Shown: positions 2,198-60,575 of the stretch, piece by piece | Layout of the letters: each line of letters begins with the position of its first letter | Numbering within the stretch: the first letter of the stretch is position 1 | Assembly (NCBI RefSeq): GCF_003171675.1 | Contig: NZ_QFZQ01000002.1 | Location: forward strand, 558,001-622,000 | Length of the DNA: 64,000 nt | Reading direction: 5' to 3' | Source of the DNA: Reichenbachiella versicolor | GTDB taxonomy: Bacteria > Bacteroidota > Bacteroidia > Cytophagales > Cyclobacteriaceae | Translations under genes and position numbers: made by a program | The notes under the pieces: generated by a model | Database searches by the model: none | What the model was told of the DNA's origin: nothing | The model's input: the letters and a program-made list of their open reading frames with translations, nothing else

Positions 2198-5100
2198 CTA
2201 AGTTTTTATAAAGCGAAATAGAAGTACTTGTTCCCCTCTCTTGAGTCTGATGAAGTAGACTCCTGATGACAGCGAGTTTACATTGATCACCTGTCTACCG
2301 TTTTCACTTCGCAGTGCTACATTATACTTGTGACCCGTCGCATCAAATAGCTGGTAAGTGGCATGCTCAAGATCTTCGGCTTCGATGAATAGATGATGAC
2401 TGGTGATCGATGGATAAATCAAGATACTTTCATCCTTCAAAGGTTCGATTTGTACTTGACGGGCATTGCTACTACAAGATGGCGCTGTGGTGCTGTTGGT
2501 GAAGTAGAGGGTAAACCCTCCTGTCTTCGATACCATCACAAAATCACCTCCAACTACATTGACATAGTAAGCTCCATCTAGTCCCACGAACCCTGTGCCT
2601 GACAGTGTGATATCTGGTGAAGAACTTCCAAATGTATGTGTGGCAGAAGCAGCTAAATTGTTCCACCAGCTAGGCTGTCCATTGTTGGTAGACATGGATA
2701 GCTGATGCAGACCATTGTTAGCTTGGTTCCAATTGATCGTAAAGTTGGTCACATTGGACAAGTCAGGACCTCCAGCGCCTAGTACATGTATATGGTTATA
2801 AGCGATGTTTTGTATAGACGGTAGCGCTGTAGATATTGGCGTCCCAAAATTGCAATCACCTGGCGATACATTGTCCTCAGCTGTGATGACCATCGTGATA
2901 GCGTCTGTTCCTCCGTTGCCATCTGATACGTTCAGCACTACAGTGTATGAGCCAAGAGTTGTGAAGGTATGAGACACGGTGACTCCTGTACCTGTGGTAT
3001 TGTCTCCAAAGTCCCAAGCGTAAGTCAAAGCATCTCCGTCTGGATCGCTACTGCTACTAGCATCAAAGGACACGGTCAATGGCACTGTGCCGGCAGTGAC
3101 GGATGGAACAAATGCAGCGATAGGATTGGAATTGATCGGTGTATCGCTTGACTGTATCTGAACTGTCTCGGTGTCCACTCCCCCATTACCGTCGTCTACG
3201 GTCAAGATGACATCGTATATTCCTGCTAGGTCATAAGTATGATTGACCAATGCTCCCGTACCCGAAGTACCGTCTCCAAAGTCCCAAGTATAAGTCAGCG
3301 CGTCTCCGTCTGGATCACTAGAGGCGGATGCGTCAAAGGACACATCTAGTGGTATGATACCAGTAGTAACAGATGTCGTGATTCTAGCCGTTGGCAGGTT
3401 ATTGACCAAGGGATCAGTCGCCGTGACAGTCAGGGTTTTGGTAGTAGTCGCTCCCTGATCGTCAGTGACGGTAAGCACAACTTGATACGAACCGGGTACA
3501 TCGTAGCTATTGGAGGTCTGAGCGGTGCTGGCGGTAGTTCCGTCTCCAAAATCCCATGCATAGCTGGATATAGTGCCGTCTGGATCTGAAGATAGACTTG
3601 CGTCAAATGACACTTGTAGCGGTGCATCTCCTGTCAAAGCGGTGGTAGAAATAACTATCTGAGGCTTCAAGTTGACCGGCGTTGAGTTTCCAGGTTCCAG
3701 CCCCCATACCAACTGCCCTTGATAGTAGAGCGTGGTTTGGATGTGCGGCTTGAATGACGACTTACCTCTATCATATGAAAAGTCGTTGGTCTGATCCTGA
3801 GACTGATATCCAGCATGGTGCAGCCGCATCTGTACGGAGCCTGATTTGCTATTCGCCGAAAGGCTGGCAGAATTAGCGAAAGCAATTTCTATATAATGCT
3901 CGCCATCGGTAGTCACTCCTGATGTACCGGACACGCCTGAGATCGCAGAGTAATCGGCGTTGAATTTTAACCCTCCCGAGTGCTCTGGGGTGTACCAATA
4001 CCGAACTGCGAAATCACTATATGGAATGGCGGCTGATGAATCATTGACTAGTCTAATGACTGGTTTTATCTCTGCACCTAATGGAGAAGAAGAGTTATTA
4101 TAATACTCTACTTTGAATGGCGAATCTGGAAGATTGGCAACTGCCTGATCTACAGTGACGGTAATCGAGGCTTCTGGCCCTGTGAGTGTACCGCTTGCAT
4201 CTGCTAACGCTAGTTTGATCTCATGCTGTCCATCTGCCTGACCTGTCACTGGTATTGGACTGAAGTCAAAGGCACTGGTGAGCAAGACATCGTCTAGATA
4301 GCACTTCACATGTTTTCCTCCGGGCTGAATATCCCAATCAAAGGTTGAAAATTCAATGTCAAAATCTGGCCCAAGGAGACTTCCGTCAAATGGATTTTTG
4401 AACGATACAGTCGGGCCAGTCGGCAATGGATCATCAGTGACGATCACAGTGAGCGTATCGGTCAAATCCATCGGAAAGTGGTTACTTCGCTCCATCTGTA
4501 GTGTCAAGGTATGAATTCCTTCACTCAAACCTGCCCCTGTACTGAACGAACCTTCGGAAGTGATCAGTCCTCGATCTGACCCATCGATTCTGAATCGAAG
4601 CTTGTAGAGACCAGAAAACAAGTCCCAGTTTTCCGTCACAAAACTGACGTCAAATGGCGTATTGACCAATACCCCGTCAGCTGGCGAATCAAAATAGATA
4701 TCTGCGCGTGAAGCGATTGGGGTTTGGGCGTCTCCACCATGAAGTGTCCAAAGTACCGCTGCATCGAAGAGCTTCCAGCCGTCGTCAGTCAACAAATGCA
4801 TGAACTGATCTCGCAGTGGGAAGGCGACTCGTCTGGAGACAGCAGATGAACCGCTTTCATATCCAAAAATGATGGGCTGAGTACCTGCTGAGGCTATCAC
4901 GATGGCATCTTCTTTGGGGGCTCCATACGGCAACTTCTGAACGATGCTGTACAGCTCGGCCGAAGCTCCCAACCCTGCGGCCATTGGGTGAGTGGGTTGG
5001 TTGATGGTTATTGTCTGATAACCTTCGGAAGTAAAACCATTGTCTCCTGTACCTCCTGGTGCTGTCAATCTTACTCTATTGTATATGTAAGGGTCCCAAG

Positions 5101-8100
5101 TCATGATCGGTACTACGGAAGATTCTATGTCACTTCCTAGTACATGTGGGTCTACTGTCACAGAGACCAATACAAGGTCATAGGGGTTAGTTTTGGCTGG
5201 CGAACTGGCATCTTCATCATCCCACACGTGCATGTTGAACCCGTACAATTGTTCCATTCGGCTTTTTACTCGCTGGTCATCTCTGGATAGGTCTTTGTCT
5301 CCTACAATAAACATGACGTCGATGGCTTCTTTGAACTGAACATTGATTTCTGGAGTGACTGAGGCGGTCTTACCATTGTTATAGTACACTTTGGCAGAAA
5401 GGCCGTATTGCTTCCAAATCACTGGCTCCCATGTGGATGTAAATGGAGCTGCAGTAGCTGAAGAGACCAATTCGTTGTCTATGAAGTATTCAATCTTGGT
5501 GACTCCGGTGATACTGGTATTCACTGCCAATTCCACAGGCGCTGATTTTGTCAACTTCGTACCATCGACAGGCGAAGACATTTCTAGCGTAAAATCATTT
5601 GAGACGCTTTGGTCATCTCCATCCAGTTGACTGAGATAGGCCACAAGGTCGTTTAATTGGCTTTGAGTCAGTGATTGTGCGTCGCTATGTCCTTCGGTGG
5701 CGTTACTAGAGGTCAATACTTCTAGTAGTGTCGCTGCGGAACCATCATGCAGATACGGTGGCGTATTCCAGATACTCTTGAGTGTAGGTACATCTAGACC
5801 GGGTAGAGTTTTGCCCATACGAAGACCACTCGTGCTAGTGATCGTACCTACATCGTGTACTCGACCTGTAGGACTATCGGTGAAGGCATCGCCTGAATGA
5901 CAACTGTTGCAGTTCAGCGTCTGAAATAGTGTCTTGCCTGATAGTGCAGCGGCTGTCATGGAGCCATCATTGTTTTTATATGGACTTTTGTCAAAGTCGG
6001 ATAGGGATTCTACATAGGCGGCGAGGGCATCCAGATCCACGGACTTACCAGCCTTGGGGTCTCCTAGCGTCAATGAGGTCGTACCTTCGATAAAGTCGGC
6101 GTTGCTAAGGAATCCTGATCCGTTGAAGTGAAAGCGTATATCGTTTTCAAAATCCTGAATTTCATCAAAATTAGCACTCCAGTGTACGCGACCATGTGCA
6201 GTTCCGGCGCGTCCTCTTAGGCTGATTGTATTTCTCAAGCCTTCTCCTCTATCCGTAAAATCCCAAACTCGACCGTCTTCTGCTCCGTCTAGGTGACAGC
6301 TGGCACAGCTAATGTATCCATCTGTACCCATTCGTTGGTCAGCGGCATTGTAGAAAATTTGTTTTCCTGTGAGTACTTGACTGGTCAAGAGTTCCGAACC
6401 CACAGTGGAAACTGTAGCCAGTTTGGATATACCTACCGTACCCGTCTCTAGCATACTTTGGGCATCGAATATGGTGACCGTTCGATCCATGAAGTTTTTT
6501 ACAAAAATCTTTTGAGTCACAGGGTCAATGATTAGCCCCTGTGGTGCGAGACCTACCTCTTCGGTAAATAGCTCCAATCCTTTCTTGGGATCAATGGCTA
6601 TCAGGTGATTATTACCTTGCATGGTTACAAACAGATAGTTTCCTGTCGGGGTGAACATTGCCGCCGATGGCTGGCCGTGGTTATCAATATCCATTCGCTC
6701 TGTGACCGTTTCAGTGGCTGTATTCAGATCAAGCTTGCTAATCGCTGTTCGCACCGAGTTGTCAAAAGTCATGGCTTGACCGTCCCTTGCCAGTCCTCTG
6801 AGGATGTTGTCCTTTTTACCCACGGTCCACGCAGTATTGTTGTAAGGATGAATAGATACCCCTGTAATGTAGTTGGGAATACCTCGTGCTTGATTGCCAT
6901 TGTCTATGGTGGTATCGTCTATGGGCAAGGTAATGGACGCTTTGAGGGAGAAGTTCGATGTGTTGACTTCCCATACATTTCCTCCACTATCTGGAGATAT
7001 CAGCTGCGTGACCAATAGCTGCGTACCATCTCCGCTAAGTGCTAATGCTCTTGGTCCATTTCCTAGCGTCAGGCTGGAGCCAATCGTATTGGTACTTCCG
7101 TCTAGCTTGGTAACTAACCCTGCACCAAACTCTGACAGGTATCCTTCTACTCCATTGTGATCAAAGACTACACCGTACGGTGATGCTCCACGACTGAGTG
7201 GTATTGACTTGACGAATACGCCTGCGGTACTGAGAATATCGATCTGATCAGCATCTCGACAAGCTACCCATGCTTCGCCCTCTGCGTCTATGGCTACACT
7301 TACTGGGTCTTGCGCTACGGGAATTTCTTTAATCTTCGCATGCGTATCTGCATCCAGCATGGTCACAGAGTTGTTGTCTGGATTGACTACCCATACAATT
7401 CGATTAGCTGCATCTATGGCTATTGGACTGGATTGGGAAGGCTTAGCGACTGGGATCGAATTGACAATGGATACTGATTTGGTGTCTACTGAGAACCCAC
7501 CATTGTTGTCAGATATTTGTACTTGTATTTTAAAATTGCCGTCTTGTAGATAAGTATGATTGACCGAGGCTCCACCCCACGCAGTCTTGGGCGAACCGTC
7601 TCCAAAGTCCCAACGATAGCTCAGTGCGTTGCCGTCTGGATCTGTAGCATTTGCACTAAATGACAACTGATTTCCTACTAGCGCTGGGAACGATGTGGTG
7701 CTGGTAATACCGCTGACGATTGGAGACTGATTACTGCTGTCTCCTCCCGTCGTGAAATAGTAGATGTATTCTTCCATACCATTTCCTACAGCGTCTTTGA
7801 TTCCTCCTTCTACAAACTTCACTTCATAGGTAGTATTGGGTAGTAGAGGTTGTCTAGGTGCGTAGTTTATCACTTGATACGAAGTAGAGCTAACGTCGGC
7901 TTCTATCGGGCTGCCGCCGAGTGGACTGACTTGGATATTGGCATCATTAAGTGTAAGATCGTCTAGCACTTCATTGATCACAAAACCTAGTGTGGTGGTC
8001 ACTGGCTGATTGATATCTCCGGATTTTGGGAAGTGAAATCCTACTGTCGGAGGTTTCAGGTCGAGTCCGTCTTGGTGTGAAAAAATGGAGGTCTTCCCGT

Positions 8101-10779: not shown

Positions 10780-10957
10780 GATTAACCATGACAGTTGTGG
10801 GCCGTTTGTTATGTAGTTTATTTCTGTACGAATATAGTCTAACCTTCGATTCGACTAATACTTTTTTGATTTACCATGAAGCTTATTTTAGATTCGAAAG
10901 GGATTTAACGTTTCCTTTACTTCTGAAACGCCGTTCAGAAATCATCGATTGTTATTT
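10780..10957 (-). repeat. attC-like recombination site A
   Basis: On the minus strand the site begins with R'' AAATAAC, which overlaps the stop codon of the gene at 10952. Next come the 5-nt spacer AATCG and an L'' region starting ATGAT. A conserved interior (TAAATCAAAAA, GGTTAGACTATATTC) leads to AAACTACATAACAAACGGCC and a final R' GTTAATC. The box-spacer-box layout and the 178-bp length are those of integron attC sites. The interior matches sites B, C and D. The R''/R' pairing with its own cassette start could not be confirmed (best candidate 12273-12279, 5 of 7). Confidence 0.6.
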
Positions 10958-12007
10958 ACTTCTTTTATCAAGAATTTGCTGAGCAGCTTCAATGGCATAC
11001 TCTGCATAATAATCATCTCTTTTGATTATTTCTTCCAGTTTTCCTGTTTCATAGTCTTTGAATTTGTCTAGAAATTCTTGTTTCTTAGATTCCTTCCTAT
11101 TGGCTTTTTCTTTTTTCTGTTTGGAAGTCAGTATTTCGAAAGAAAGTTTAGGGTACAAAACCTGCTCAGTTTGATAGTTGTGTTGAATTAAGCTCACAAG
11201 GTCCATAGGAGAAATTGTTAAATGCGTAATTATATAGTTCCCCTTTCGAGATTTAATCAGGGTGTAAGTATGTTGATCAAATACCCGTTGGTCATCAGGT
11301 GTTTTTATGATTTTAATAGAAGTTATCTCTGATTTATGTATTTGATGAATTATGCCGTTTCTATCAATGATCAATTTCTTTTCCTGTGGTAAGTAGTTTA
11401 TTTTTTGTCTACTATCATTGTTCCAGTATGAAAGGTTCAGTAAAGTACTGGGAAGAATTGCAACTAAACAAAGAAGCGTAAGAACTCCTATCATGGTTAG
11501 ATCATAGTTTTCAGCAAGAGTAAAGATCGTTATTGGAACAAACATGAATAACAGAGGCAAGAACATGTCTCCTTTTTCCCTAGAAAACTCAATTTCAACT
11601 TTCTCAAAATCCTTAACACTCTGGTTAACATCAAATAGCTCAAGAGTTTCATCAATGGAAGAAGAAAAAAATTGCTCAATTAATTCGTTCACCGAAATAC
11701 TTGATCTTACATCGAACGAGTCATTTGATACACTTAGGCTACCACATTTATCATCATTTTTATAGTAAACATAAAAACCGTAACTATTCAAAGAGGAAAT
11801 TGATAAGAAGTGTTCGTCCGATAAGTAAAAATAGATAGTTGGAGAAGTTGAAGATAAATTTTCCTGTCGGCGTCGTTCTACTTTTTCATACTGCTCCTCC
11901 CAAGGGAATTCTGAGTAAAGGGCAATTGCAGTACTATAATTTAAATCGACTTCTCTTTTCTCAATATGTTCAGGATCAAAGTCGGCATTTTGGTATCCAA
12001 AGGTCAT
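10952..12007 (-). CDS. Orphan membrane protein with PH-like domain, cassette cargo
   Basis: About 351 residues if started at the ATG at 12007; the frame can be extended to a TTG at 12022, which is less likely. There is no signal peptide. The first ~145 residues are soluble and mixed alpha/beta. Two transmembrane helices follow at about 148-195 (LPLLFMFVPITIFTL and GVLTLLCLVAILPSTLL). Next is a beta-rich stretch of about 100 residues resembling a PH-like or DUF-type beta-sandwich (ITSIKIIKTPDDQRVFD), and then a Lys/Glu-rich helical tail. The stop codon lies inside attC-like site A, as is usual for integron cassettes. I do not recognise the family and assign no function. Confidence 0.7.
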   Translation of the reverse strand: MTFGYQNADFDPEHIEKREVDLNYSTAIALYSEFPWEEQYEKVERRRQENLSSTSPTIYFYLSDEHFLSISSLNSYGFYVYYKNDDKCGSLSVSNDSFDVRSSISVNELIEQFFSSSIDETLELFDVNQSVKDFEKVEIEFSREKGDMFLPLLFMFVPITIFTLAENYDLTMIGVLTLLCLVAILPSTLLNLSYWNNDSRQKINYLPQEKKLIIDRNGIIHQIHKSEITSIKIIKTPDDQRVFDQHTYTLIKSRKGNYIITHLTISPMDLVSLIQHNYQTEQVLYPKLSFEILTSKQKKEKANRKESKKQEFLDKFKDYETGKLEEIIKRDDYYAEYAIEAAQQILDKRSK

Positions 12008-12344
12008 GTTCAAATAGGTCAATTCGTATTAGTTACAGTATAATACCAGAATTGATGACAATATCACCAATTCACAATGGATTTGTTATTTATAGTATCA
12101 AATTTTTGTCTTATCGTAAAGGCTACCAAGAATTAAGGCAAATTCAAATAGCCACATTAATCGCTTCTTACTTCGAATACATGCTATGAATAGATTAAAT
12201 AGGTTATCTGAAGCCTTCTGAAGAATGACTCGAAATTTAAAGTGAAACCACCTACTATATTCCGTAACGAAACACTAACTGTTAAAACAATTGGTGCAAT
12301 TATAATATGACTTTCATAAAACATGTGTTTCCGAATAGATTCCG

Positions 12345-12662
12345 AAAAAATATGCGTAAAACATTTTTAAAAAAAATTATGCGTGGATGGTGTCAAAAAG
12401 AATATGCGTAAAAAGGTTTTTGAAAAAATTATGCGTGACACGAAAAACGTTTTACGCATAAAAATTTGAAAAATTATTTTTTATGCGTGACCACCTAGTG
12501 CATAAAAATATGCACAACCATCCTACGCATAAAAATATGCACGACCCCTTTACGCATATATGCGTGGTTGTCTTTTGATAATATGCGTAAGTGAAAAAAT
12601 TCAATCACGCATAATTTTTTGCAGACGAAAAAAATATGCGTAACCGAAAAATCTTTTCACGC
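12345..12662. repeat. ATATGCGTG word cluster 1
   Basis: About 13 copies of TATGCGT or its reverse complement ACGCATA, plus three TGCAC/GTGCA variants, occur in about 320 bp. They are separated by A/T-rich spacers of 12-30 bp. Some neighbours are head-to-head (ACGCATATATGCGT). Spacing is irregular, so this is not CRISPR. The 12008-13108 spacer contains no convincing gene. The same word builds the cluster at 60085-60380. Confidence 0.8.
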
Positions 12663-26174: not shown

Positions 26175-26296
26175 TTAACGAAGCTTTCTTATCTCCTCTA
26201 TAAGTTCATCAGGATCTTGCCTATTGTCAGTAATTGTGATTATCTCAATCTCCTGATCTTTGACTCTATAATAGAAGGAGGTTAATTTCTACACAA
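26175..26296 (-). pseudogene. 3' part of split parE-type toxin gene
   Basis: The minus strand encodes KLTSFYYRVKDQEIEIITI followed by TDNRQDPDELIEEIRKLR and a stop. This is the standard C-terminal half of a RelE/ParE-family toxin (YYRV, EIEIIT, DNRQDP). It has no start codon and is preceded in frame by a TAG. The N-terminal half lies at 27403-27598. Joining 196 nt and 122 nt gives 318 nt in a single frame and a normal ParE length of about 105 residues. The TAG probably arose after disruption, for example from TCG. The toxin is therefore inactive as a full-length product. Confidence 0.85.
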
Positions 26297-26480
26297 CGAC
26301 TCTATATGCTTGGGGGCGTTTGTTACGTAGTTTGTTTCTATAAGAATATGGTCTAATCTTTGATTCTATTCATATATTTTTGATTTACAATGTGGCTTAT
26401 CACAGATTTGAAGGGGCTTCTAAGAGCTCTGCAACTTCTTTTACCACTATATCGCCCTGTAGACATATCGATTGTTACCA
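26291..26480 (-). repeat. attC-like recombination site B (3' end of the inserted cassette)
   Basis: On the minus strand it reads R'' TGGTAAC, spacer AATCG, and L'' beginning ATATG and reaching GGGCG. The family interior follows (TGTAAATCAAAAA, GATTAGACCATATTC, CTACGTAACAAACGCC), then L' (GCATAT), spacer AGAGTC, and G^TT. In the circular cassette R' would be GTTGCCA, whose reverse complement TGGCAAC matches R'' at 6 of 7 positions. L' and L'' are also complementary through ATATG and GGGCG. This two-arm complementarity is the diagnostic architecture of attC sites. Confidence 0.75.
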
Positions 26481-27402
26481 GCATTTTTAGAAAAGTGACT
26501 TCATCGACTTCAATAGAAATTTTATTTGATTCTCATGTGTAGTCATAATGTTAGAAATCAGATTACCATTAATACTAGATGGTTTCATTTTTTCAAAAAC
26601 AATGATTCCATGCGGATTGTCGGCATCAATACTGTTGAAACGATATATATAAAATGCACAGCTTCTCATTGTGAGCTTTTTCAACCGTTCGTCAGTAATT
26701 GTGCAATTTTTCTTCATATAGTTTTTATAGGAGCTTCCTCCCTTCTTCCATTCAGGAATATCGTGAATTTCAAAAGTGTCTTGATGCCAACCTTTAGCGA
26801 TAAATCCTTCTTCATCTGAATAAACCTCCTGACCTCTCTTGTTGTAAGTAGGGTTGTTTGCGTATCTTCCTAGTAGTCTAAAATGAGTTCCTTCGTGTTT
26901 GTATAAGCTCACTCTACCATTACCCTCTGTTGTTTTAAAAAACTCACTGAAAATTTCTTGAATTTGATTGCTACAAAGTTTGAAATATTCCTCCTTCAGG
27001 ATTTCAATACGATCAACTAAGCCGTTGTTAATGGTATCTAGTTCATTTAGCTTAAGGTATTTCTTATTACTTATGCTTGATGAAATAATTCCGATGATAC
27101 TTAATAAGACTCCCAAGATAATAAGTGCGAGATTAAGTTCTTTCCAAGTATAACCTAAGAGTAATTTATTGGTGCTATCAGATTTAATATCAGCTAGTAG
27201 AAAGAGATAAGCACCTGACAAGGTAATTAATTGATTTTTATTTGGGTTGAGGATTGTCCGTACAATAGGGAAAGCCCAAGCTATAAGAAGAAGTAAAAGG
27301 TAACCAACTAAATAAAGAATATCTAAGCTCACTGAATAAGTTAAATTAATGAGGGCGCAATTTACTTTTTTAAGATTACAAACTGAAGATAGTTGCTGGC
27401 AA
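26297..27402 (-). mobile_element. Integron-type gene cassette inserted in parE
   Basis: This 1106-bp segment interrupts a parE-type gene exactly at a GTT triplet: the toxin reads AAGAGCG then TT on one side and G then TTGTGTAG on the other. It holds one gene (26487-27332) and a 3' attC-like site. No integrase, terminal inverted repeats or target-site duplication other than the shared GTT is visible, which fits integrase-mediated capture at a secondary site rather than transposition. The insertion is in the same orientation as the toxin. Confidence 0.75.
26487..27332 (-). CDS. Membrane-anchored GAF-like protein, cassette cargo
   Basis: The protein has 281 residues with a GTG start at 27332; no in-frame ATG precedes the first helix. 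Three hydrophobic segments (about 4-25, 38-50, 66-90) are followed by a short coiled coil. A soluble domain of about 150 residues resembles a GAF sensor fold, with motifs GRVSLYKHEG, FRLLGRYANNP and GFIAKGWHQDTF. The fold assignment rests on pattern only. It may be a membrane sensor or a phage-defence component, since cassette cargo often is, but nothing in the sequence proves a function. It is the only gene on the cassette inserted in parE, and its stop lies 7 bp before the R'' box of attC site B. Confidence 0.75.
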   Translation of the reverse strand: MSLDILYLVGYLLLLLIAWAFPIVRTILNPNKNQLITLSGAYLFLLADIKSDSTNKLLLGYTWKELNLALIILGVLLSIIGIISSSISNKKYLKLNELDTINNGLVDRIEILKEEYFKLCSNQIQEIFSEFFKTTEGNGRVSLYKHEGTHFRLLGRYANNPTYNKRGQEVYSDEEGFIAKGWHQDTFEIHDIPEWKKGGSSYKNYMKKNCTITDERLKKLTMRSCAFYIYRFNSIDADNPHGIIVFEKMKPSSINGNLISNIMTTHENQIKFLLKSMKSLF

Positions 27403-27598
27403 CGCTCTTATAAATATCATTAATCGAATCGTACCTTCGGCATGATTCAGGAAAACTCTCAATTTTAGCAACTGCTTGCTTGAGTTCCTTTAAAAATTTT
27501 TGCTTTGATTTTTCACCCCAATTCAAGGTTAGATATTCAATAAGGGATTCTAATTTAAATTCCGCTACAAAAGAAAGGTAAACCTTGTGTTTATTCAT
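27403..27598 (-). pseudogene. 5' part of split parE-type toxin gene
   Basis: The frame from the ATG at 27598 encodes a normal RelE/ParE N-terminus (VYLSFVAEFKLESLIEYL, ELKQAVAKIESFPESC, DIYKSV). After Val66 it runs into cassette sequence and stops at 27362, giving 78 residues instead of the family's ~100. The ATG overlaps the antitoxin stop by 4 bp, as in intact toxin-antitoxin operons. The catalytic C-terminal strand pair lies 1.1 kb away at 26175-26296. Confidence 0.88.
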
Positions 27599-27813
27599 GA
27601 AAACTTAGACATAAAAGAATCAAACGATGTTCTTTTACCTTCATTCAGTTCGGTTAATGCAATTTCAATTTCCTCCTTTTCTGTATCGGTAAGCGTGTTA
27701 GTAAATTCGTCTTGACTATCCACTATCAACGCTTTAATCTCCTCTATAACTCTTGGGTTATCAAGGTTCAGAATCAACTTTGCAAGTTCTATTTTAGAGG
27801 TTTGAATATCCAT
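27595..27813 (-). CDS. Antitoxin of the disrupted RelE/ParE module
   Basis: The protein has 72 residues from the ATG at 27813; a TTG two codons upstream is possible. It is acidic and helical, with an N-terminal segment IELAKLILNLDNPRVIEEI and a C-terminal toxin-binding tail (ELNEGKRTSFDSFMSKFS) typical of Bacteroidota antitoxins next to ParE-type toxins. Overlap with the toxin start (ATGA) indicates coupled translation. The antitoxin appears intact although the toxin is broken. Confidence 0.85.
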   Translation of the reverse strand: MDIQTSKIELAKLILNLDNPRVIEEIKALIVDSQDEFTNTLTDTEKEEIEIALTELNEGKRTSFDSFMSKFS

Positions 27814-27936
27814 ACTCAAAGATAATATACTAAAAACAAACCTCTGATTTGATCTACATCATTTTCAATCTTATTGAATCATTCTCTTAATGATATGTTT
27901 TAGAAGCAATAACAGATTAATTCAGACTTCAACCAT

Positions 27937-28127
27937 CTCCATGTTAGACATGGAACCTTCCCCTCGTAACATGGAGGGGGGAAAGCCTAACATGGAGGAC
28001 AAGCTTACTGGCATGGAGCATGCTAATTGTAACATGAGAAGATAAGATTGTAACATGGGAAGACAACCTTGTAACATGGAGGGGTATAGCACCAACATGG
28101 AGGGTAAGAAAATCACATGGAGAAGTT
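27937..28127. repeat. ACATGGAGG word cluster
   Basis: About ten copies of ACATGGAGG or close variants (ACATGGAAC, GCATGGAGC, ACATGAGAAG, ACATGGGAAG) occur at irregular 18-28 bp intervals. Several are preceded by TTGTA. A 64-residue minus-strand frame through it is Met/Leu/Pro-repetitive and is an artefact. The remainder of the 27814-28415 spacer holds only the terminator at 28266. Confidence 0.75.
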
Positions 28128-28727: not shown

Positions 28728-28876
28728 AACGTTTTATAGGTTGTTTTATTAATAAGTTACAGCTTATAATTATCATTCATGCACCCGAACTACATTATTA
28801 ACACACTGACAACAAATAGATAACAAACCTAAAATCTTACTATCTCAGAAGCTCATCTATTCAAAATAGATAAAAC

Positions 28877-56103: not shown

Positions 56104-56292
56104 GGCTAACCTCAAAATGCTATGATTGTTAATTATACAATTTATTACTATATGAATATAGTCGAATCTGAGATTCGACTCATACATTTTTTGATTTACA
56201 CTAAGTACAGCGCAGAATCAACAGGATTTCTAAAAACACTAAATACTTCTCTTTATCTCTAAACCTTCCCGTATATACCACAATGCTATATA
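56104..56292 (-). repeat. attC-like recombination site C
   Basis: On the minus strand R'' is ATATAGC, overlapping the stop of the gene at 56286. It matches, at 6 of 7 positions, the complement of R' GTTATAT formed from that cassette's 5' end. The interior has TGTAAATCAAAAAATG and GATTCGACTATATTCATA, shared with sites A and B. The final R' is GTTAGCC, 3 bp before the next start codon. The AAC of R'' is degenerate (AGC). Confidence 0.6.
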
Positions 56293-57014: not shown

Positions 57015-57186
57015 ATATAACTATCATATTTGCTGTGGGACATTTTTTACATAGTTTGCTTTTAGTAGAATCTGGAGTTTGACTCGTGAATTTTCGATTT
57101 ATAATAAGGATCATCAGAGTTTCATAGTATACTATAACCTTACACTTCATTCTGAACTGACCAGCTTATATCATCGATTATTAATA
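57015..57186 (-). repeat. attC-like recombination site D
   Basis: On the minus strand R'' TATTAAT, which overlaps the end of the DUF4145 gene, is followed by spacer AATCG and L'' ATGAT. The interior includes ATAAATCGAAAATT and AAACTATGTAAAAAATG, then R' GTTATAT. The R'' pairs with the cassette's own R' GTTAGTG through G-T wobble only: every difference from CACTAAC is a C-to-T change. This preserves folding although the canonical AAC has become AAT. Confidence 0.62.
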
Positions 57187-57779
57187 TTTTTTCTTCGTTC
57201 TATAAAATCATCAAACTTCTGTTTAAAAGAATAAGAAAAATCAAGAATTGCGATAGTGAAATCCAGTATATCTCTAGCGTCAGTAGAAGTAAATGTTGAA
57301 TCAATATTATGAGCAGCTTCATTACCCAAGAGCCTCAGTTGATTAGCCCATTCAAAAAGCTGTTTATTAATGATACCAGTTTCTTTTAGTTTCTTGATTG
57401 ATTCTGCAAGATTTCCTGACTTCACATCTTTTAAAGAGCAGAAACCTTCTATGGTACGTCTGCACATTATAGCAGTAGCTGTATTTGCCCCTCCTCTATA
57501 ACACTGTATACTTTCCTGAAGTGACTTTCTTAATTGTTCAGGAATGGTTGGGTTCAAATGAAAATCTCCAGTTGGAAACAACAATCGAGGTGTTCCAAGG
57601 TGAATTTGATCAGCGAAAAATTCGGGATTTTGAACTGTAAGAATTGGTTTTTTGCATTTAGGACATTTGAGAAACTTATATATTTCGCCTTCAAGGGGTT
57701 CCAAAGGGTTGTCGACTCGGTAGCTACCGTGTTCAATGGCATCCACATTAATATTACATACGTGACATTCTACGACCAT
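57171..57779 (-). CDS. DUF4145 protein with N-terminal zinc-ribbon, cassette cargo
   Basis: The protein has 202 residues. The N-terminus has CHVCN and, 30 residues later, CPKCKK, forming a four-Cys zinc-ribbon. The helical DUF4145 domain follows (SIQCYRGGANTATAIMCRR, WANQLRLLGNEAAH). DUF4145 is often found in restriction and other defence loci and in nuclease fusions. It lies on a cassette of about 781 bp (57021-57801) with attC-like site D at its 3' end. Confidence 0.87.
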   Translation of the reverse strand: MVVECHVCNINVDAIEHGSYRVDNPLEPLEGEIYKFLKCPKCKKPILTVQNPEFFADQIHLGTPRLLFPTGDFHLNPTIPEQLRKSLQESIQCYRGGANTATAIMCRRTIEGFCSLKDVKSGNLAESIKKLKETGIINKQLFEWANQLRLLGNEAAHNIDSTFTSTDARDILDFTIAILDFSYSFKQKFDDFIERRKNINNR

Positions 57780-57795
57780 GTGCAGTATTTATAGA

Positions 57796-57920
57796 CACTA
57801 ACATCTATACATGAATGCGATTAGAGATATTAGTAATATTATTTTACATAGATAAATCAAACGTAGCACAATTGAAACTACTATTTTCGCAGCATAACTT
57901 TATACAGTCGATTGTATGCT
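57796..57920 (-). repeat. attC-like recombination site E
   Basis: On the minus strand R'' AGCATAC, spacer AATCG and L'' ACTGTAT are followed after about 125 bp by R' GTTAGTG. R'' matches the complement of GTTTGCT, the R' box at the presumed start of the two-gene cassette (59875-59881), at 6 of 7 positions. The interior is shorter and differs from sites A-D, so this call is weaker. Confidence 0.5.
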
Positions 57921-57924
57921 TTTT

Positions 57925-58983
57925 TTAGTTCTCCATTTTTTGTAAAACAACCACTATCTTGTCTTCCAAACCATTATTAATTTCCAATTGTAAGTCATTC
58001 ACTGAACTATTTGATTCACCGTCAATTACTTTTATACTTTCTAGTTCATCAGGATAGCCTATAATTGATAAATCACATGCTAATGGAATAGAAATTCGTT
58101 TAAGTTTTAATTTGTGAGAAAGTAGAGAAACATCCTTAGTAAAGGGCTCAGAATATTTTTCTCGTATTATTTCGTATTCAAATCTCGTTTTCAACCTACC
58201 TTCTAGATAGTTATTAGAAAAATCTCTAGGAGAAATAATTCCTGAGGTTTGCTCTCGATACATCACGTCTAAGGCTTTCAGTAAACCTACTCTGTCGCTT
58301 AAATTGTTGACATTGGATTCAATGAAGAACTTAGAATCATTGTAAAAGTTCTTTGATTTTAGTTTGTCATTGCGGTCTGTAGTGAGCCCAAGAAATTTTC
58401 CATAGAAATATTCTGTTAAGTCTTTCTTTTGCAGATTAAATAAATCATCATACATGTAAGGTCTAAATGTCGAACCTTCTTTGATAAAGAACCCTATTTT
58501 ATAAAAGTCTTTTGCAGGAGAAAGAAATACATCTTCTATAACTTGAAGTTCATGTCCGGAAATACTAAAAACTTCTTGAAGCTCGGCCTTGATTATGAAA
58601 AAAAAGTTTTGATTTTGAGAAGTTCTCCCATCTCCTATAAGGCAGTATCCTCCTGGGATTTTAGCACGATAATGGGCTCCCGCTAATTTGTGAGCAAGTT
58701 CTTGAGAATTTTCCAAAAATTTTTCATCATTAAGGTCATCAAATGACTTTAAAAAGGAAAAAACACTCCTCTCAGATTCGTCTTGAAATTCTAATTTGAA
58801 TGTCTTATTTGTCTTAGACAAAGCTTCATGAAGTCTATTTTTTAGAATACCCTTATCATCATCTCCAATGGTTAATAATTCATTAGAAGTTACAGCAAAC
58901 GCTTCAAGTTCTTTGGTTTTCGGATGTACTTCGTGGGCAATTAGCCTATTAATACTTACAATTTCTAGGTCAGTTAAACTCAT
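57925..58983 (-). CDS. NA37/NdpA-like nucleoid-associated protein, cassette cargo
   Basis: The protein has 352 residues. The N-terminus (IVSINRLIAHEVHPKTKE), the central DLTEYFYGKFLGLTTDRND segment and the following SKNFYNDSKFF resemble the YejK/NdpA (NA37) family, whose members bind the nucleoid. The assignment is from pattern and is moderately sure. Its ATG overlaps the stop of the upstream DUF6602-like gene (ATGA), so the two are coupled. Both sit in one cassette, probably 57802-59880, that ends in attC-like site E. Confidence 0.75.
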   Translation of the reverse strand: MSLTDLEIVSINRLIAHEVHPKTKELEAFAVTSNELLTIGDDDKGILKNRLHEALSKTNKTFKLEFQDESERSVFSFLKSFDDLNDEKFLENSQELAHKLAGAHYRAKIPGGYCLIGDGRTSQNQNFFFIIKAELQEVFSISGHELQVIEDVFLSPAKDFYKIGFFIKEGSTFRPYMYDDLFNLQKKDLTEYFYGKFLGLTTDRNDKLKSKNFYNDSKFFIESNVNNLSDRVGLLKALDVMYREQTSGIISPRDFSNNYLEGRLKTRFEYEIIREKYSEPFTKDVSLLSHKLKLKRISIPLACDLSIIGYPDELESIKVIDGESNSSVNDLQLEINNGLEDKIVVVLQKMEN

Positions 58984-59852
58984 AATTTATGAAAATTGGA
59001 AAATGAAAAATCAAACATATTTTTTGTATATTCTCTATTCTTTACAGGAGAAACAACAGTTGAATTAAGGTGTTCTAGTACTAGCATATATTGGTATGTA
59101 AGGGTATTGTGTTCTCCCTCCATTTGAAATAGAACCCAAATATTATCTTCTGTTTCAAACTCTGGGTAAAGATTGATTTTAACTTTTTCTTCTTCAAATA
59201 GCTGTTTATTCACGTTGAAAACGATTCCGAGATCTAAAAAACAGATGAAATTGGGAAGATTTCTATTATCCTCTTTATTTAGATAGTTTCCTATTTTATG
59301 GGCATCGCATTGAGAAGAATCAACGAACGTCATAAATGTAAATAACGGATTTCGAAATGGAAGTTTTGTTAAAGGTTTCTCAACATAAAAACCCGAACCT
59401 GAGGTTTCAATATAAGCAGGTGAAATATCATCTCTGACAAGTTCATTCTTTGTTCTTGCTATATTATTTGAAAAAGACTCTATTAAATCAGATTTATAGA
59501 AAGAGGATTTAACTTCTGCAAAACAATAGGTAGATTCAAAATATACTAACTCTGATTTATCTGATAGATTGAAGAGAACAGGGTTTTTCTCATTTTCGGA
59601 AATGACAATATCATACTGAGGACTTACCTTTAGGTTTTTATCGACTATATGTCCATCACAAACATGATACTTTGGAAACAGTTTCCTTGCAAAAAAATCT
59701 TTTACTGCTAATTCAACTTCATCTCCACTTGCACGAATATTCTTAAGATCTTTTCGAATAGAGCCTGAAAGCCTATGGGCCATTAATATTTTTTCCAAAT
59801 CATGTCTGAAGTATTCAAAAATAGGAAGGGTATTGAATGGCTTTAACTCCAT
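58980..59852 (-). CDS. DUF6602-like protein with PD-(D/E)XK nuclease features, cassette cargo
   Basis: The protein has 290 residues from the ATG at 59852; the frame extends to a TTG at 59867. The sequence GDEVELAVKDFFARKLFP with YDIVISE and CFAEVKSSF gives a spaced E...D...EVK arrangement, as in the PD-(D/E)XK nuclease superfamily and DUF6602. A putative role is DNA cleavage in a restriction-like or anti-phage unit with the NA37-like gene, which overlaps it by 4 bp. The function is inferred; the active-site residues fit but activity is untested. Confidence 0.75.
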   Translation of the reverse strand: MELKPFNTLPIFEYFRHDLEKILMAHRLSGSIRKDLKNIRASGDEVELAVKDFFARKLFPKYHVCDGHIVDKNLKVSPQYDIVISENEKNPVLFNLSDKSELVYFESTYCFAEVKSSFYKSDLIESFSNNIARTKNELVRDDISPAYIETSGSGFYVEKPLTKLPFRNPLFTFMTFVDSSQCDAHKIGNYLNKEDNRNLPNFICFLDLGIVFNVNKQLFEEEKVKINLYPEFETEDNIWVLFQMEGEHNTLTYQYMLVLEHLNSTVVSPVKNREYTKNMFDFSFSNFHKL

Positions 59853-60084
59853 TGTTTCAAAAATCAATCTTCATAGCAAACTATATATCTAACAAACAAC
59901 AAATGTCATCCATTCAAAATACGCCTGTTTTAAAAAGGTGTCAATTAATCCTCTCTAAAATAGCCTATCCGAAGCTACCAACAAACCAAAATGACGCTTA
60001 ACTGCTTTTTACTTCAAATCACACGTTCCATTGATTTTTTTTTGTAGAGCGACGTAGCGTAATTACTAATAAATTAGACTTCAA

Positions 60085-60380
60085 AAAAATATGCGTGATT
60101 CGAATCTGTAAAAAAATATGCGTGGCCAGAGTAAGTAAAAATATGCGTGATTGATTTTCAAAAAAAAATATGCGTAACTGTGTTTGAAAAAAATATGCGT
60201 GACTCAAAAAAACCATATGCGTGACTTAAATGAACCACGCATATATGCGTGACACCCCTACGCATATATGCTAACTCAAAACAACCACGCATATTTATTT
60301 CGTCTGAAAAAAAATATGCGCGGTTGAGATCTAGAAAAATATGCGTAGTTAAGGTTTTTGAAAAAATATGCGCAGTCAGG
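60085..60380. repeat. ATATGCGTG word cluster 2
   Basis: About 13 copies of ATATGCGTG/ATATGCGCA or the reverse complement occur in about 300 bp, each mostly preceded by an A-run (AAAAAATATGCGTG). Head-to-head pairs (CACGCATATATGCGTG) occur in the middle. Open frames at 60019 and 60249 through it are repetitive and spurious. No gene is seen in 59868-60575. Same word as 12345-12662. Confidence 0.8.
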
Positions 60381-60575
60381 ATTTCAGTTTCTTCCTTAAA
60401 TAAGTTTAAAGAACGAACTTATCGATCTAGGGCAAATTATCATCCACGTAAGTTCACCGAACATCACCCAGTGGTCGAGTAAGTAATCCTATAGAATCAT
60501 CACCTTATTATAGACAAACGTGCGATGACATAAATAAACAGCTCTAGTTAAAAAGCTCTAGCGTAGCTTTGGGGC

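What the first reader, a model, noticed from the sequence alone, without database searches (positions are those of the whole stretch)
26175..27598. Integron-type cassette captured precisely inside a parE toxin gene
The toxin N-terminal half (27403-27598) and C-terminal half (26175-26296) are separated by 1106 bp. Removing 26297-27402 rejoins 196 + 122 nt into one 318-nt frame of normal ParE length with family motifs on both sides. The insertion point is a GTT triplet, the R' cleavage context of integrase. The inserted segment is one gene plus a 3' site whose R'' (TGGTAAC) complements the R' formed by the two cassette ends (GTTGCCA), with complementary L arms as well. This is unusual direct evidence for cassette capture at a secondary site in a Bacteroidota chromosome, and it would silence a toxin while leaving the antitoxin.
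Basis: partly seen in the sequence, partly recalled or inferred. Interest (0 to 1): 0.9.

Follow-up and report, generated by a model that had tools for sequence, protein, structure and literature searches.

The report
Gene cassette inside a toxin gene
A mobile gene cassette sits exactly inside a bacterial toxin gene, and it appears to come from an integron-like gene-capture system whose enzyme lacks the part thought essential for handling such cassettes.

Summary
A 1,106-bp segment (26297-27402) splits a parE-like toxin gene with no net gain or loss of codons: both parts keep one offset in 4 of 4 homologues where both aligned. The rejoined frame is not open: TAG follows two codons after the junction. 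The segment is an integron-type cassette: start and R'' end pair over 10 nt (one G-T), and its 190-bp site belongs to a subtype whose copies in 3 of 3 congeners end at the same CG^TT. In the window's genome only fragments of the platform recombinase were found, plus 8 attI-like copies whose identity stops at GTT. Congeners hold arrays of up to 16 linked cassettes; hairpins favour the bottom strand at 131 of 152 sites. The recombinase lacks the IntI additional (I2) domain in 16 of 16 aligned, 11 of them from loci with an array; no canonical IntI was found in 8 of 8 genus genomes. Best reading: capture at a secondary site by a non-canonical integron. Secondary-site capture is known; an I2-less platform is the surprise. 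No recombination was shown.

The parts
27595..27819 (-). parD-like antitoxin ORF, 74 aa, intact
   Evidence: 58% identical homologue upstream of the intact toxin in G007; no Pfam match over cut-off and no NCBIfam match
27403..27598 (-). parE toxin gene, 5' part: 65 codons plus the G of the GTT
   Evidence: PF05016 24.8 bits; homologues
26297..27402 (-). inserted gene cassette, 1,106 bp, from TT (27402) to G (26297)
26487..27332 (-). cassette cargo ORF, 281 aa (GTG start), no known family; stop codon 3 nt before the 10-nt R'' end
   Evidence: 0 Pfam families at E<=1 and 0 NCBIfam families at E<=0.01; no homologue in the other 145 of 146 genomes searched; weak PADLOC PycTM match E 0.006
26291..26483 (-). 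attC-type site: extended R'' 26483-26474, L''/L' arms, R' GTTGTGT 26297-26291 (its TT onward belongs to parE)
   Evidence: whole-site fold not better than shuffles
26175..26296 (-). parE toxin gene, 3' part; in-frame TAG at 26291-26289, then 37 codons of ParE C-terminus
   Evidence: letters; 65% identity over 37 aa to the intact toxin of G007; no ParE hit in Pfam on its own
10790..10960 (-). related attC-type remnant 3' of a hypothetical gene; right end does not close at GTT in the alignment
   Evidence: 79% identity over 107 nt; no convincing circle partner
56133..56200 (-). more decayed remnant of the same site subtype between hypothetical genes
   Evidence: 82% identity over about 60 nt

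Best explanation
The segment is a gene cassette captured at a secondary genomic site. An integron-like recombinase of this genus cut a GTT triplet inside parE (G^TT) and joined it to the folded attC-type site of a circular cassette. The cassette came to lie between G27403 and T26296 with no need of a target duplication and no net loss of target codons, in the toxin's orientation. The toxin reading frame is broken (a 78-aa ORF whose last 12 residues are cassette-encoded), and a further TAG in the 3' part shows it is a pseudogene; the antitoxin ORF is intact. The platform behind it is a non-canonical integron: a ~380-400-aa tyrosine recombinase without the IntI additional (I2) domain, a palindromic attI-like site just after it, then an array of cassettes with attC-type sites. 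In this genome only fragments of that recombinase were found, so the insertion is a fossil of past activity or happened in trans. Shown: anatomy, register, site homology, arrays, linkage, absence of the I2 domain. Inferred: that this recombinase does the reaction, that it uses the bottom strand, and the order of events.
For: Register kept in 4 of 4 homologues. R''/start pairing 10 of 10 with one G-T; circle-form arms -20.1 kcal/mol on longer arms. Site subtype in three congeners (G004, G006, G007), all three copies reaching CG|TT at the column of the parE junction and diverging after it. Eight attI-like copies in the own genome, 0 with the reversed pattern; the shared sequence stops at GTT before eight different continuations, two of which resemble each other. 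Cassette chains: best score 198.2 against 18.9 in reversed controls over 20 stretches; in other genera 12 of 26 recombinase loci (11 of 22 genomes) exceed the highest control (28.6) and 0 of 7 XerC/D loci do. Bottom-strand hairpin more stable at 131 of 152 sites, 19 top, 2 tied; control sites lean the other way, 20 bottom and 50 top of 72. I2 region 79 residues in 16 of 16 recombinases of this family (11 from loci with an array above control) against 120-122 in two canonical IntI and 82-86 in Xer proteins. TIGR02249 below cut-off in 3 of 3 full-length proteins scanned (193-203 against 265).
Against: No recombination, circle or junction read was observed. The whole-site DNA fold is no better than shuffles on either strand (z -0.24 and -0.29), as expected of a decayed site but not support. 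The window site shows no bottom-strand preference in circle form (-13.1 bottom, -15.1 top) and almost none integrated (-13.0, -12.6). The end pairing has a second 10-of-10 partner at 28813. 14 of 26 recombinase loci in other genera showed no chain above control; five of these hold under 6 kb of sequence. In 7 of 21 loci no first-cassette GTT was found near the recombinase. No empty allele of this parE at this locus was found, and synteny there is poor. Many relatives of the recombinase core on plasmids (Acinetobacter, rhizobia) were not tested for arrays.
Confidence: 0.78

Rival explanations
1. The cassette was inserted by a canonical IntI (with I2 domain) that this lineage once had or met in trans; the I2-less recombinase beside the arrays is a bystander or does only attI reactions.
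For: Canonical IntI exists in the wider family (2 of 146 genomes over the cut-off), and earlier work reports intI with the additional domain in the Bacteroidetes/Chlorobi group (PMC2426708, passages). PMC7790495 (abstract and passages) holds that acquiring I2 turned the enzyme toward single-strand recombination.
Against: No canonical IntI was found in 8 of 8 genus genomes, yet arrays are there. A first-cassette GTT lies 39-59 nt after the recombinase match in 11 of 21 loci, and the array-recombinase link recurs in 12 of 26 other loci.
Confidence: 0.13
2. An ordinary transposon or IS-like element landed in parE, making a 5-bp duplication (CGTTG occurs at both junctions).
For: CGTTG is present at both ends.
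Against: No transposase found for its 281-aa ORF, no matching inverted ends on reading the letters, a hairpin-type site at one end only, and that end is homologous to sites elsewhere.
Confidence: 0.03
3. parDE was itself a cassette in an old array, and the locus is a decayed cluster of attC sites rather than a true off-array capture.
For: In G007 the homologous parDE lies behind a decayed attC-like site, with ends that nearly pair (GATAGCGA / TCGCTAATC, read by eye). TA genes in integron arrays are well known (recalled).
Against: The insertion is inside the coding sequence, not at an attC boundary. No chain of two or more cassettes above control level was found in the window.
Confidence: 0.15
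4. The two toxin parts are unrelated fragments and the apparent precision is chance.
For: The C part alone gives no ParE hit in Pfam.
Against: Both parts match the same proteins at one offset in 4 of 4 homologues.
Confidence: 0.01

Closest known systems
Integron cassette capture at secondary (attG or off-target) sites: Loot et al. 2024 (known here only from its citation in PMC12444791); aadB cassette in RSF1010, Recchia and Hall 1995 (known here only from the reference list of PMC10127599)
   Same: A cassette inserted at a site outside attI and attC
   Different: As cited, those are E. coli and IncQ-plasmid cases; here it is a chromosomal toxin gene of a presumed Bacteroidota lineage whose platform has an I2-less recombinase
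Sedentary chromosomal integrons (Vibrio-type; features recalled)
   Same: Long arrays of mostly unknown genes, attC-type sites with GTTR cores, pairing cassette ends, hairpin favouring the bottom strand
   Different: Recombinase below the integron-integrase cut-off, no additional domain, about 110 extra N-terminal residues, gene in the same orientation as the array with the attI-like site 3' of it
Integron-like subgroup of simple tyrosine recombinases (PMC8138268, passages read)
   Different: It also calls the insertion essential for integron function; in the passages seen no array is tied to members lacking it
XerA / NF040815 site-specific tyrosine recombinases
   Same: 3 of 3 full-length proteins scanned pass this model (222-233 bits against 220)
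   Different: XerC/D-like loci of the genus show no array (0 of 7)
CTXphi integration by XerCD
   Same: Xer-type enzymes without I2 (as discussed in PMC4792948, passages)
   Different: A phage that uses host enzymes; no encoded recombinase, no array; its site stem has no extrahelical bases according to that paper

Membership tests
Canonical integron | IntI integrase over the family cut-off (TIGR02249) | tested here: not met
   193.4, 195.9, 202.7 bits against 265; none found in 8 of 8 genus genomes
Canonical integron | IntI-specific additional domain (I2) | tested here: not met
   79 residues in the region in 16 of 16, against 120-122 in two IntI, one of them a partial frame
Canonical integron | attI next to the integrase, first cassette joined at G^TT | tested here: met
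   8 attI-like copies in own genome; first-cassette GTT 39-59 nt after the recombinase match in 11 of 21 loci, 22-92 nt in 3, none found in 7; it lies 3' rather than 5' of the gene
Canonical integron | array of cassettes with attC-type hairpin sites | tested here: met
   152 distinct sites from chains scoring 20 or more, GTT followed by A or G in 152 of 152
Canonical integron | attC bottom strand preferred | tested here: met
   by folding energy only: 131 of 152, control 20 of 72; not seen in the window's own site
Canonical integron | extrahelical bases on the L'' side | tested here: inconclusive
   genus: 24 sites L'' side, 3 L' side, 13 both, 19 none of 59; other genera 18, 20, 11, 44 of 93
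Canonical integron | integrase-catalysed excision and insertion | not testable with these tools
   needs an assay or junction reads
Secondary-site (attG-type) insertion | G^TT-type junction at a non-att target, target codons kept | tested here: met
ParE toxin | PF05016 over cut-off | tested here: met
   N part only, 24.8 against 23
Transposon insertion | transposase and terminal inverted repeats | tested here: not met
   ends read by eye

The most novel reading that the evidence does not exclude
Bacteroidota hold a separate class of integron in which a Xer-like recombinase without the I2 helix, encoded next to a divergent small zinc-finger-like gene in half of the loci tested, recombines folded attC-type sites and captures cassettes at a palindromic attI and at GTT triplets elsewhere. 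It would be either an ancestral state of integrons or an independent solution to single-strand recombination.
Probability: 0.5. Interest if true: 0.88.

Novelty: new variant of a known kind. Interest (0 to 1): 0.76.

Why it matters
At least one survey picked integrons by the IntI additional domain (PMC2426708, passages), so I2-less platforms would be missed by it; IntegronFinder 2.0 (PMC9024848, passages) reports one complete integron in Bacteroidetes, in Salinibacter ruber M1. If I2-less platforms with real arrays are common here (47 of 146 relatives, and at least 18 of 395 phylum genomes, carry a recombinase at E <= 1e-70), a large gene-capture reservoir has been overlooked, and the view that I2 was the key step to single-strand recombination becomes directly testable. 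The parE insertion suggests that such cassettes also land inside chromosomal genes and break them.

Tried and rejected
Rfam with a permissive threshold gave one sub-gathering match, not an att site. The whole-site fold was no better than shuffles. The pattern search for GTTGCCA alone is uninformative (220 + 219 hits). The scan for solo sites in the window is not specific enough alone. Window sites at 10.8 kb and 56.2 kb have no convincing circle partner (the second was only read by eye), so they are called remnants. A first tally of arm length pointed to L' being longer at 97 of 152 sites, because it counted the spacer; the bulge count replaces it and is inconclusive outside the genus. The 152 sites come from chains scoring 20 or more, some of them below the highest control (28.6), so a few may be false. 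The tree puts two canonical IntI inside the new group (98/99), but one has a long branch and one is partial, so ancestry is not claimed. The cargo protein gave no usable family. In one search the position used as recombinase end was the match end, not always the stop codon, so the printed distances are from there. One search scored at most 4 candidates per genome, so its count is a lower bound.

Full report
What is at the locus. On the minus strand the order is parD-like antitoxin (27819-27595), 5' part of a parE toxin gene (27598-27403), a 1,106-bp segment (27402-26297), then the 3' part of parE (26296-26175). The N part scores as ParE_toxin PF05016 at 24.8 bits, cut-off 23. The N match to L039 is weak (E 0.08), and the N alignments end at residues 30-53, so what is tested is the net length across the break. 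L040 is itself split between frames, and in L035 (G005) the gene is also damaged; neither was used.

Correction. After the GTT at the junction come GTG and then TAG (26291-26289) before the ParE C-terminus. The toxin gene is a pseudogene with two lesions; which came first cannot be told.

The segment is a cassette. Its first ten letters (GTTGCCAGCA, counting the target's G) pair with TGCTGGTAAC (26483-26474), which lies 3 nt after the cargo's stop codon: 10 of 10 with one G-T. A second GTT, at 28813, also pairs 10 of 10 if G-T counts. The inner arms give -12.6 kcal/mol, reached by 0.12% of 3,455 random pairs. By itself this is not enough in 64 kb: a solo-site scan gives 4 such candidates on the minus strand, 0 on the plus strand and 1 in two reversed controls. 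The stronger evidence is homology. The site has relatives at 10.8 kb and 56.2 kb of the window and in G004, G006 and G007: 4 of 8 genus genomes counting our own. In the alignment of five copies, the three congener copies and ours run to CG|TT, where the parE junction lies, and diverge after it; the 10.8-kb copy does not keep that end, and the G007 row was cut short on the left by the slice I gave.

The system it belongs to. The window's genome carries eight copies of an attI-like sequence, 0 with the reversed pattern. Over the last 30 letters four are identical, three have one change and one has two, and after GTT they continue differently, though two continuations resemble each other. Four of the eight follow C-terminal fragments of a tyrosine recombinase found by tblastn; the other four keep only its last codons, by eye. 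No long match to the full recombinase was found in this genome (E <= 1e-70; fragments of this kind only). On contig C17 such a fragment is followed by an array whose cassette ends pair 9-10 of 10. In G002, G003, G004 and G005, 4 of 7 congeners, a full-length version (381-401 aa in the three translated) lies directly upstream of an array; G006 has one with an array and one without, G001 a shortened frame, G007 fragments. A chain detector that requires pairing cassette ends and pairing site arms gives scores up to 198.2 (162.7 on the recombinase's own strand of that locus) against at most 18.9 in reversed sequences, over 20 stretches including the window, which has no chain above control. In other genera 12 of 26 recombinase loci, from 11 of 22 genomes, exceed the highest control, 28.6, while 0 of 7 XerC/D-like loci do; of the 14 that do not, 5 hold under 6 kb because the contig ends there. 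In 11 of 21 loci a first-cassette GTT lies 39-59 nt after the recombinase match, in 3 at 22-92 nt, in 7 none was found; a palindrome precedes it in many (by eye).

The sites. From 154 chain sites in 20 of 22 stretches, 152 are distinct; GTT is followed by A or G in 152 of 152. The bottom strand folds better at 131, the top at 19, 2 tie. Selection of sites was made on the top strand, and control sites from reversed sequence lean to the top, 50 to 20 of 72, so the bias is not made by the method. The window's site itself shows no clear bias and the fold of the whole site is not significant; it looks decayed. Single-base or two-base bulges favour the L'' side in the genus (24 against 3, 13 both, 19 none) but not elsewhere (18, 20, 11, 44).

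The recombinase. Three full-length proteins pass NF040815 (222.1-233.1 bits, cut-off 220) and fall below TIGR02249 (193.4-202.7 against 265), the latter match being in two stretches; against solved IntI4 (2a3v) the match is also in two stretches, with chain residues 208-242 between them unmatched. In a joint alignment the region is 79 residues in 16 of 16, 82-86 in Xer proteins, 120-122 in two canonical IntI; 11 of the 16 come from loci with an array above control. Canonical IntI over the cut-off occurs in 2 of 146 relatives and was found in none of 8 genus genomes. A divergent gene of about 136 aa with a treble-clef-like start (PF09889, below cut-off) lies beside it in 13 of 26 other-genus loci. 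Recombinases at E <= 1e-70 occur in 47 of 146 relatives and at least 18 of 395 phylum genomes; not all need be array-linked, and plasmid relatives of the core exist in other phyla.

Literature. The listings (at most 20 rows each, of up to 1,594 papers) showed no paper on an I2-less integron in Bacteroidota; only open-licence PMC papers are held. [quoted passage not shown] PMC7790495 (abstract and passages) and PMC4792948 (passages) tie single-strand recombination to I2. [quoted passage not shown] PMC12444791 (passages) and PMC10127599 (passages) mention insertion at secondary sites and cite the primary work, which I did not read.

Verdict. Cassette capture inside parE: very likely. Action of the I2-less recombinase: likely, unproven. 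The single insertion is a new case of a known event; the platform behind it is a new variant of integron and is the reason for the score.

Noticed in passing
G000 contigs C2, C16, C17 (L017, L018, L019, L086, L087): Eight attI-like copies, four with C-terminal recombinase fragments found by tblastn, each followed by different sequence: the platform has been duplicated or broken up in this genome.
   Followed up: partly
L060:175-582, L061:175-600, L064:2716-3132 and 13 of 26 other-genus loci: A conserved, divergently encoded ~136-aa zinc-finger-like protein sits next to the I2-less recombinase; possible accessory factor.
   Followed up: partly
L089 about 4500-5600 (G007 parDE): The intact parDE homologue in G007 looks like a decayed integron cassette itself, behind a damaged attC-like site (by eye).
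   Followed up: partly
L018 6260-6620: Fragment resembling a group II intron maturase C-terminus between two recombinase fragments and their cassettes (by eye).
   Followed up: no
window 57171-59867: Hypothetical genes with weak to moderate matches to defence models: PD-T7-4 (E 2.6e-6), PD_DExK (9.6e-18), NucC-like (6.4e-8).
   Followed up: no
window 27940-28125 and 12300-12650, 60000-60420: Short degenerate repeats (AACATGGAGG-like; ATATGCGT-like) in intergenic DNA.
   Followed up: no
L061:2902-3315 and L017:11312-11857: The same cassette gene (near-identical protein start MNRMIKIYIGITLLLL) in arrays of two species, suggesting exchange.
   Followed up: no
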